DNA of 64,000 bases from Pyrococcus sp. ST04 (GTDB lineage Archaea > Methanobacteriota_B > Thermococci > Thermococcales > Thermococcaceae): contig NC_017946.1 of NCBI RefSeq assembly GCF_000263735.1, positions 1,653,348 to 1,717,347 on the forward strand, written 5' to 3'. Below are positions 59,563-61,694 of this stretch, piece after piece; the first letter of the stretch is position 1, and the number at the start of each line of letters is the position of its first letter. A program made the translations under genes and the position numbers. Under the pieces are notes generated by a model that saw nothing but the letters and a program-made list of their open reading frames with translations, made no database searches and was not told where the DNA came from.

Positions 59563-59579
59563 TCTCACCGGGAGTGAGT
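59563..59579. promoter_or_regulatory. Candidate TrmBL1/Tgr operator upstream of GAPDH
   Basis: TCTCAC-CGGGA-GTGAGT is a near-palindrome close to the Thermococcales glycolytic motif TATCAC-N5-GTGATA. It lies just upstream of the AT-rich TATA candidate GTAAATAAC (59578-59586), which would start transcription about 20 bases before the ATG at 59628. Operators upstream of the promoter are activating sites for gluconeogenic genes in this regulon, as GAPDH would require. Motif similarity only. Confidence 0.45.
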
Positions 59580-59627
59580 AAATAACACTTAAGAAGACGT
59601 GAAAAGAGGAAAAATCGGGTGAGAAAA

Positions 59628-60632
59628 ATGAAAGTCAAGGTGGGGGTTAATGGTTACGGAACCATAGGGAAAAGGGTTGCCTATGCCGTTATGAAACAGG
59701 ACGATATGGAGCTTATAGGGGTCACAAAAACAAAGCCAGACTTTGAAGCTTATAGAGCTAAAGAACTAGGAATTCCAGTCTATGCAGCTAGTGAGGAATT
59801 CCTTCCACGCTTCGAGAAGGCTGGGTTCGAAGTAGAGGGGACACTAAACGACCTCCTTGAAAAAGTTGACGTCATAGTTGATGCAACTCCAGGAGGTATG
59901 GGAGCGAAGAACAAACCACTATACGAAAAAGCCGGTGTTAAGGCTGTTTTTCAAGGAGGAGAGAAGGCTGATGTGGCAGAAGTATCCTTCGTTGCCCAAG
60001 CCAACTATGAAAAGGCTTTGGGAAAGGACTACGTTAGGGTAGTTTCATGCAATACTACTGGACTTGTGAGAACTCTGAGTGCAATCCAAGAATACATAGA
60101 CTACGTATACGCTGTTATGATCAGGAGGGCTGCAGATCCAAACGATATAAAGAGAGGCCCAATAAATGCTATAAAGCCCTCGGTAACAGTTCCTTCCCAC
60201 CACGGACCAGACGTTCAAACTGTTATTCCAATAAACATAGAAACATCTGCATTCGTTGTTCCAACAACTATAATGCATGTGCACTCTATAATGGTTGAAC
60301 TCAAGAAGCCAATAGAGGCTAAAGACGTTATCAACATTTTCGAAAGCACAACTAGAGTTCTCCTCTTTGAAAAGGAGAAAGGCTTCGAGAGCACGGCTCA
60401 GCTTATAGAGTTTGCAAGGGATCTCCACAGGGAATGGAACAACCTGTATGAGATAGCCGTATGGAAAGAAAGCGTAAGCGTTAGGAATGGAAGGTTATTC
60501 TACATTCAGGCAGTTCATCAGGAGAGCGATGTTATTCCCGAGAACATAGATGCTATAAGGGCAATGTTCGAGCTCGCGGATAAGTGGGAAAGCATCAGAA
60601 AGACCAACAAGAGTCTTGGAATTCTCAAGTGA
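59628..60632 (+). CDS. gap: Glyceraldehyde-3-phosphate dehydrogenase, archaeal type
   Basis: Gluconeogenic archaeal GAPDH of 334 residues. The NAD(P) motif is [17 protein letters not shown] at the start. The catalytic cysteine is near residue 141 ([12 protein letters not shown]) and the histidine motif is [18 protein letters not shown] 59628 with GGGTGAG upstream is preferred over GTG 59619. In Pyrococcus, glycolysis uses ferredoxin-dependent GAPOR, so this enzyme works toward sugars. A family 4 encapsulin-like gene follows directly. Confidence 0.95.
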
Positions 60633-60669
60633 TACCTCCTCTGGGATACATATTTTTTGTATTTTTCAT

Positions 60670-60680
60670 AAATTATTTTA
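60670..60680 (+). promoter_or_regulatory. TATA box before the encapsulin-like gene
   Basis: AAATTATTTTA lies in the 85-base gap after gap, behind a T-rich stretch (60651-60666) that could end the gap transcript. The predicted start near 60701 gives a leader of about 17 bases before ATG 60718. The encapsulin-like gene may therefore be transcribed both alone and by read-through. Confidence 0.45.
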
Positions 60681-60717
60681 AGGTCTCAATGATAATCTAT
60701 TTTTGCGAGTGAGGGAG

Positions 60718-61041
60718 ATGGGGAACTTACCAAAAGGTCTCAGCAACCAGCTTATAGATCTCATTACCGCAGCAATAAACGAACTTAAAGAAGATGGACT
60801 CGAGCCAGACATAATGCTAGTCGGACCGGAGTTTAAGAATTATATAACGCCGGATATACTGGCAATAATAAACCTCAAAATATACGAGATCAAAGAACTT
60901 GGGGCAGATGCTGTTATTGCAGACTCCAAATATCTTGGGCAACTTAAGAAAGCTTCGAAGAGAATTTCAATAGAGCCGCTTCTTCAAGAGGAAGAATGGG
61001 AAGAAATAATAAAGCAACTTCCAGAGATCACTGAAGAGTGA
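60718..61041 (+). CDS. Family 4 encapsulin-like protein (HK97 A-domain only)
   Basis: The 107-residue protein has the signature of the truncated HK97-type A-domain proteins called family 4 encapsulins: [18 protein letters not shown], then [20 protein letters not shown] and [18 protein letters not shown] recall the P. furiosus homologue PF0899 with a solved structure (2PK8) showing the same pattern (LEELGGDAVVIDSKVLG). The genes are described in two-gene pairs with metabolic enzymes, including GAPDH, which is exactly the upstream neighbour here. ATG 60718 is used; TTG 60703 and GTG 60709 are in frame. Whether it forms a shell or a smaller ring is unknown. Confidence 0.8.
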
Positions 61042-61627
61042 GGATATTTTCAAGCCTCCTTCTTAAGATATATCCAAGTCCTCCTCCTATTATTATCCCT
61101 GAAACTGCTTGCACAGTATCGTTGTATAATTCTCCAAGGGCTCCAGCAGGTCCATACAGTAGATATGCAACGCTAACGTAGCCAACAACCATAACGAGTC
61201 CTCCGAGTGTAGTTGCAAGCAATACTCTGGCATAGCTCGCATTGTCCTTCGTAATGTATCCGACGACGATTCCTTCAGTACCCTTGATTATCAGTGTAAA
61301 CAAGGCCCAAGAAGGATACCCTATAAGATCAGCCATTGCTGACCCTACTCCGCCTGCGAATCCTCCAACTAGTGGGCCGAAGAGAACTGCTGTCAGCATT
61401 ATCATTATGTCGCCAAAGTTTAGATAGCCCTGCGAAGCAGGGATTGGTATTCTGATTATCATCGTTGTTACAGTAACCAAAGCCGCCATTATAGCCGATA
61501 CTGCAAGAGTTTTTACAACTCTGAACTTCTCCCTATTTACGAATATGTAGCCAAAATAAACTATAGCCACCATCACCACTATCGCCTTAAAGTACGGAAC
61601 ATAAGCCTCAAGCGTGGCCTCATCCAT
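61028..61627 (-). CDS. ECF transporter S component (substrate-binding membrane protein)
   Basis: Membrane protein of 199 residues with about six helices. The blocks [37 protein letters not shown] and [19 protein letters not shown] are typical of ECF S components that bind vitamins or nucleobase-like substrates. ATG 61627 has AGGTGAG upstream. No ATPase or T subunit is adjacent, so it likely shares modules encoded elsewhere. Its 3' end overlaps the encapsulin-like gene by 14 bases, convergently. Confidence 0.8.
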
Positions 61628-61694
61628 CGGGCTCACCTAATGAACTAAAGCCTTGAGCATAAATATAAAGGTTAAGCTTGATAAGGTGACCGAG

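What the first reader, a model, noticed from the sequence alone, without database searches (positions are those of the whole stretch)
59563..61041. GAPDH next to a family 4 encapsulin-like A-domain protein
The gene after gluconeogenic GAPDH encodes a 107-residue protein with the family 4 encapsulin pattern ([28 protein letters not shown]). From the literature as I remember it, these truncated HK97-fold proteins occur beside specific enzymes in hyperthermophiles, GAPDH among them. A viral capsid fold retained next to a heat-labile metabolic enzyme would be a compartment or a stabilising ring. Whether it assembles at all is open.
Basis: partly seen in the sequence, partly recalled or inferred. 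Interest (0 to 1): 0.85.

Follow-up and report, generated by a model that had tools for sequence, protein, structure and literature searches.

The report
GAPDH beside family 4B encapsulin A-domain
The small gene after GAPDH is a real, already catalogued relative of one piece of a virus-shell protein, but it sits beside GAPDH only in the genus Pyrococcus; in every other related genus surveyed it sits in an operon with a different sugar-phosphate enzyme (DeoC), so the GAPDH pairing looks like a later rearrangement and a compartment around GAPDH is unlikely.

Summary
Window 60718-61041 encodes a 107-aa family 4B A-domain protein (NCBIfam encap_f4b E 9e-41; Pfam ENCP4 E 4e-30), 85 nt after archaeal type II GAPDH (59628-60632). 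The predicted fold matches PF0899 (2PK8) and then mostly HK97-fold capsids and encapsulins, weakly but consistently. Family 4 and its 'GAPDH operon' type are published (PMC8346489), so the object is already known. The survey adds that the GAPDH pairing is restricted to Pyrococcus. All 8 Pyrococcus 4B loci lie downstream of gapdh; all 69 from other Thermococcales genera lie directly behind deoC, overlapping it in all 46 loci measured. Pyrococcus has lost deoC. In P. yayanosii an inverted permease separates gapdh from 4B, and the same permease sits inverted after gapdh in several other genera, so direct adjacency probably arose when the permease was deleted. A convergent ECF transporter gene follows 4B almost everywhere. 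A classical closed compartment is very unlikely: the shell-closing parts are absent. Best reading: a small oligomeric accessory protein, ancestrally coupled to DeoC, possibly re-partnered with GAPDH in Pyrococcus. Binding to GAPDH rests on a cited P. furiosus proteomics report that I could not read.

The parts
60718..61041 (+). Family 4B A-domain encapsulin-like protein (ENCP4), 107 aa; helix 6-25, four-strand sheet, C-terminal helix 86-99, Pyrococcus-specific tail with LPE(I/V) at 101-104
59628..60632 (+). Archaeal type II (phosphorylating) GAPDH, 334 aa
   Evidence: ATG behind GGTGA at about 59617-59621
60633..60717 (+). 85-nt spacer with T-runs and an AT-rich TATA-like box (AAATTATTTTAAGG, about 60670-60683) shared with three other Pyrococcus spacers; possible own promoter (suggestive only)
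   Evidence: matrix test not significant
59563..59579 (+). TGM-like palindrome TCTCACCGGGAGTGAGT upstream of gapdh (candidate TrmBL1 site)
   Evidence: TrmBL1 binding upstream of P. furiosus gapdh reported in PMC4706686
61028..61636 (-). Convergent ECF riboflavin-type transporter S component; its end overlaps the 4B gene by 14 nt; the conserved downstream neighbour of 4B in all genera

Best explanation
The gene encodes a family 4B A-domain protein: a free-standing domain with the fold of the HK97 A-domain, too small to build a closed shell of the classical kind. It probably acts as a small homo-oligomer (dimer or ring) that attaches to a sugar-phosphate enzyme and stabilises or organises it. 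Its ancestral partner gene is deoC (deoxyribose-phosphate aldolase), with which it overlaps in an operon in the other Thermococcales genera. In the Pyrococcus lineage deoC was lost, the 4B-transporter block came to lie behind the gapdh-permease pair, and after P. yayanosii branched off the permease was deleted, leaving 4B next to gapdh. There it may associate with GAPDH, which like DeoC handles glyceraldehyde 3-phosphate. Shown here: family, fold resemblance, neighbourhoods, absence of deoC, permease retention in P. yayanosii, purifying selection. Inferred: order of events, oligomer, binding to GAPDH, any effect on the enzyme.
For: Family. Fold: AlphaFold2 mean pLDDT 84.5; Foldseek best hit 2PK8 (E 1.4e-7), then mostly HK97-fold capsids and encapsulins, e.g. 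M. tuberculosis encapsulin TM 0.51, and phage major capsid proteins in the viral library. Neighbourhood: DeoC directly upstream in 53 of 53 non-Pyrococcus loci fetched, in 7 more and in 9 more by coordinates; GAPDH in 0 of the 53; overlap of 4-41 nt in all 46 measured, 4 nt in 24; GAPDH upstream in 8 of 8 Pyrococcus loci. PF01791: only the long (about 284-codon, FBP-aldolase-type) hit in 9 of 9 Pyrococcus genomes, a second, DeoC-sized hit in nearly all others. P. yayanosii carries an inverted permease between gapdh and 4B; the same permease (68-82% identical) lies inverted behind gapdh in six non-Pyrococcus loci and its orthologue is missing from the other Pyrococcus genomes. P. yayanosii 4B is the Pyrococcus sequence nearest the other genera. 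PMC8346489 cites a P. furiosus proteomics study for a stable GAPDH:A-domain complex.
Against: No interaction or oligomer was tested here, and the cited proteomics paper (Menon 2009) was not held. 2PK8 was described as a crystal dimer, not a ring. GAPDH shows only one fixed difference between Pyrococcus and 17 relatives, so no sign of a new binding surface on it. Four genomes checked keep deoC and the transporter side by side with 4B missing between them, so DeoC does not need it either. Foldseek E-values to capsids are weak (0.02-0.4), and V-ATPase stalk subunits score in the same range.
Confidence: 0.5

Rival explanations
1. Bystander: the protein has a housekeeping role of its own, unrelated to GAPDH; adjacency in Pyrococcus is an accident of gene loss, and the gene is transcribed from its own promoter.
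For: GAPDH pairing in one genus only; permease between them in P. yayanosii, where co-transcription would have to run through an inverted gene; 85-nt spacer with T-runs and TATA-like boxes in the Pyrococcus spacers; PF1874 listed as 'singleton', not operon, in the TrmBL1 study PMC4706686; GAPDH essentially unchanged.
Against: A reported stable GAPDH:A-domain complex in P. furiosus, cited in PMC8346489; adjacency kept in the 7 other Pyrococcus loci; the promoter matrix test was not significant.
Confidence: 0.35
2. A stabilising ring: A-domain pentamers (facets) cap or brace GAPDH tetramers, as proposed for family 4 in PMC8346489.
For: A-domains line the five-fold vertex in HK97-type shells (PMC8346489); fold resemblance; cited complex.
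Against: No oligomer data; 2PK8 described as a dimer; GAPDH is a 222-symmetric tetramer with no evident match to five-fold rings (general knowledge); pairing confined to one genus.
Confidence: 0.12
3. A closed nanocompartment that encloses GAPDH.
For: Analogy to encapsulins of families 1-3 only.
Against: The protein is 107 aa and lacks the P-domain, E-loop and N-arm (PMC8346489); GAPDH has no specific targeting tag: its SLGILK end is shared with GAPDHs not next to a 4B gene and with Sulfolobus 1B7G.
Confidence: 0.03

Closest known systems
Family 4B A-domain encapsulins, GAPDH operon type (Andreas and Giessen 2021, PMC8346489)
   Same: Same protein family, same gene order (gapdh, then A-domain gene), same lineage; the published class covers this locus.
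   Different: Here the GAPDH type is found in Pyrococcus only and is better described as a derived neighbourhood with a spacer than as a conserved two-gene operon.
Family 4B A-domain encapsulins, DeoC operon type
   Same: Orthologous protein, same convergent ECF transporter gene downstream.
   Different: deoC instead of gapdh upstream, genes overlapping; the protein lacks the Pyrococcus C-terminal LPE(I/V) tail.
PF0899 / PDB 2PK8 (family 4A, hydrogenase type)
   Same: Same Pfam family and fold; 38% identity in the structural alignment.
   Different: 4A has a longer loop between the helices and lacks the 4B C-terminal helix; the same genome's own 4A gene is elsewhere, behind the sulfhydrogenase (L095).
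Classical encapsulins and HK97-type capsids (families 1-3, PF04454, PF05065)
   Same: A-domain fold.
   Different: Full-length shell proteins with P-domain and E-loop; none of family 1 in this genome.

Membership tests
Family 4B A-domain encapsulin-like protein | Match to the curated 4B model above cut-off and better than to 4A | tested here: met
   NF041191 138.1 bits (cut-off 90) against NF041190 44.9 bits; PF08967 104 bits
Family 4B A-domain encapsulin-like protein | About 100 aa with the HK97 A-domain fold only | tested here: met
   107 aa; AF2 pLDDT 84.5; Foldseek to 2PK8 E 1.4e-7, then mostly HK97 capsids and encapsulins with weak E-values
Family 4B A-domain encapsulin-like protein | Gene downstream of gapdh or deoC | tested here: met
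   gapdh here; deoC outside Pyrococcus
GAPDH-type two-gene operon | Pairing of gapdh and 4B conserved across Thermococcales | tested here: not met
   Pairing only in Pyrococcus; inverted permease between the genes in P. yayanosii
GAPDH-type two-gene operon | Co-transcription of the two genes | not testable with these tools
   no transcript data held; spacer features suggest an own promoter but the matrix test was inconclusive
Encapsulin nanocompartment (functional sense) | Self-assembly into a closed shell | not testable with these tools
   needs biochemistry or electron microscopy; the domains that close HK97 shells are absent
Encapsulin nanocompartment (functional sense) | Dedicated targeting sequence on the cargo | tested here: not met
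   SLGILK at the GAPDH C-terminus is general to these archaeal GAPDHs, including Sulfolobus 1B7G

The most novel reading that the evidence does not exclude
The 4B A-domain protein is a transferable accessory subunit that follows enzymes releasing the heat-labile metabolite glyceraldehyde 3-phosphate: DeoC ancestrally, and after DeoC was lost in Pyrococcus, GAPDH, through the new C-terminal LPE(I/V) tail.
Probability: 0.15. Interest if true: 0.65.

Novelty: already known. Interest (0 to 1): 0.35.

Why it matters
The function of family 4 'encapsulins' is unknown and has been argued from which enzyme gene lies next door. The survey shows that for 4B this neighbour is gapdh only in Pyrococcus and deoC wherever 4B was found in the other Thermococcales genera, so experiments on the ancestral function should start from the DeoC pair in a tractable Thermococcus, and the Pyrococcus GAPDH pair becomes a natural test of partner switching against chance adjacency.

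Tried and rejected
1) GAPDH C-terminus SLGILK as an encapsulin targeting peptide: rejected, it is shared with GAPDHs not next to a 4B gene and with Sulfolobus. 2) Family 1 encapsulin in the same genome: none. 3) Viral relatives by sequence: none in viral contigs or PHROGs. 4) Own-promoter test with a matrix trained on the window: inconclusive, low-information matrix, AT-rich shuffles score as high. 5) GAPDH change specific to Pyrococcus: only residue 147. 6) GAPDH tree to place P. yayanosii: poorly resolved; the 4B tree was used instead. 7) Menon 2009 proteomics paper: not held; the T. kodakarensis interactome paper mentions neither the family nor this GAPDH. 8) First scan of genome contigs with the single protein found nothing; with the alignment it found only Thermococci, though the patterns used could not reach distant 4C members.

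Full report
Observation. The ORF at 60718-61041 (+) encodes 107 aa and contains both quoted motifs. It scores 138 bits against the curated NCBIfam model for family 4B encapsulin shell proteins and 104 bits against Pfam ENCP4; the closest solved structure by sequence is PF0899, 2PK8. The gene before it, 59628-60632, is archaeal type II GAPDH. Across the whole window such motif matches are no more common than chance, so the palindrome rests on position and the literature.

Fold. An AlphaFold2 model built on 47 aligned family 4 proteins has mean pLDDT 84.5. Foldseek finds 2PK8 first (E 1.4e-7) and then mostly HK97-fold capsids and classical encapsulins, individually weak (E 0.02-0.4, TM up to about 0.5 over the query) but consistent; the viral library gives phage major capsid proteins among its best hits. 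V-ATPase stalk subunits score in the same range, so the match should not be overstated. The A-domain reading stands. Whether it is a shrunken capsid or an older small fold is not decided by this.

Already known. Andreas and Giessen (PMC8346489) described family 4, its 4A, 4B and 4C groups and its GAPDH and DeoC operon types, and cite a P. furiosus proteomics study for a stable GAPDH:A-domain complex. That study was not held, so the complex is second-hand here. No later experimental paper on the family was found in the library searched.

Survey. Among 94 Thermococcales genomes, all 74 of high quality carry a GAPDH and at least one ENCP4 protein. The 4B gene lies downstream of gapdh in all 8 Pyrococcus genomes where it was found, and in no locus examined outside Pyrococcus. 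In 53 of 53 fetched loci from other genera, in 7 more (L144, L146-L151) and in 9 more by coordinates (G035, G051, G053, G059, G063, G064, G065, G067, G071), the gene directly upstream is deoC. In all 46 loci where the gene caller placed DeoC directly upstream the two genes overlap, by 4 nt in 24 of them (some starts uncertain). The convergent ECF transporter gene follows in 52 of 53 and in all Pyrococcus. PF01791 gives only the longer, FBP-aldolase-type hit in 9 of 9 Pyrococcus genomes; nearly all other genomes have in addition a DeoC-sized hit. Four genomes from three other genera (G073, G076, G087, G093) have deoC and the transporter side by side with 4B missing between them.

How the GAPDH neighbourhood arose. 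In P. yayanosii the order is gapdh, inverted permease, 4B, inverted transporter. The same permease (68-82% identical) lies inverted directly behind gapdh in six of the non-Pyrococcus gapdh loci examined, and the other Pyrococcus genomes lack its orthologue. In the 4B tree P. yayanosii is the Pyrococcus sequence nearest the other genera (few columns, so moderate weight). The simplest order is: ancestral gapdh-permease and deoC-4B-transporter; in the Pyrococcus stem deoC was lost and the 4B-transporter block came to lie behind gapdh-permease; later the permease was lost. This is inference from gene order. It means that direct gapdh-4B contact is secondary, and in P. yayanosii the two could be co-transcribed only through an inverted gene.

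Transcription. The gapdh-4B spacers of seven Pyrococcus species (85 nt here to the ATG) contain T-runs and an AT-rich box starting about 40-50 nt before the start codon, AAATTATTTTAA in four of them and TATATAA or TATAAAG forms in the others. The TrmBL1 study lists P. furiosus gapdh as a singleton. This suggests an own promoter, but a matrix trained on this window did not separate the boxes from AT-rich shuffles, so it is suggestive only. The DeoC-linked genes have no spacer.

Sequence change. 4B is under purifying selection in Pyrococcus (mean pN/pS 0.25; GAPDH 0.065). All 8 Pyrococcus 4B proteins have a C-terminal LPE(I/V) tail that is absent from the DeoC-linked ones, whereas GAPDH has a single fixed difference from 17 relatives. 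If there was a switch of partner, the change is on the 4B side.

Mechanism. A classical closed shell is very unlikely: only the A-domain is present. A small oligomer attached to an enzyme is the most economical functional reading, given the gene overlap with deoC and the cited GAPDH complex; but the pairing with GAPDH in one genus, the losses of 4B beside retained deoC, and the nearly unchanged GAPDH leave the bystander reading almost as likely. Both DeoC and gluconeogenic GAPDH release glyceraldehyde 3-phosphate, described as thermolabile in PMC5503249. That shared metabolite is an attractive but untested link.

Same pattern in the paralogue. The 4A gene of this genome lies behind the sulfhydrogenase genes (L095), as in four other Pyrococcus, but not in Pyrococcus G008 and G011; in the other genera its upstream neighbour varies and its convergent downstream neighbour is constant. 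In both groups, then, the upstream enzyme is the variable element and the downstream neighbour the more stable one, which weakens the argument from enzyme neighbours in general, DeoC excepted.

Names. The window's genome is one 1,736,885-base contig in the genus that includes contigs of 1,765,118, 1,738,505 and 1,716,818 bases, which from memory are P. abyssi, P. horikoshii and P. yayanosii; species and genus names for the G-handles in this report rest on those lengths and are not database results.

Noticed in passing
   Followed up: partly
L095:2982-3269 (G000:C1:905690-905962): The same genome's 4A paralogue lies directly behind the [NiFe] sulfhydrogenase genes, but this link is missing in two other Pyrococcus genomes (L100, L101).
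   Followed up: partly
L181-L184: Four genomes of three other genera keep deoC and the convergent ECF transporter side by side with the 4B gene missing between them: apparent losses with DeoC retained.
   Followed up: yes
60718-61041 and 7 Pyrococcus orthologues, residues 101-104: Pyrococcus-only C-terminal LPE(I/V) tail after the 4B core.
   Followed up: partly
61028-61636: The convergent ECF riboflavin-type S component gene overlaps the 3' end of the 4B gene by 14 nt and is its most stable neighbour across genera; why is unexplained.
   Followed up: no
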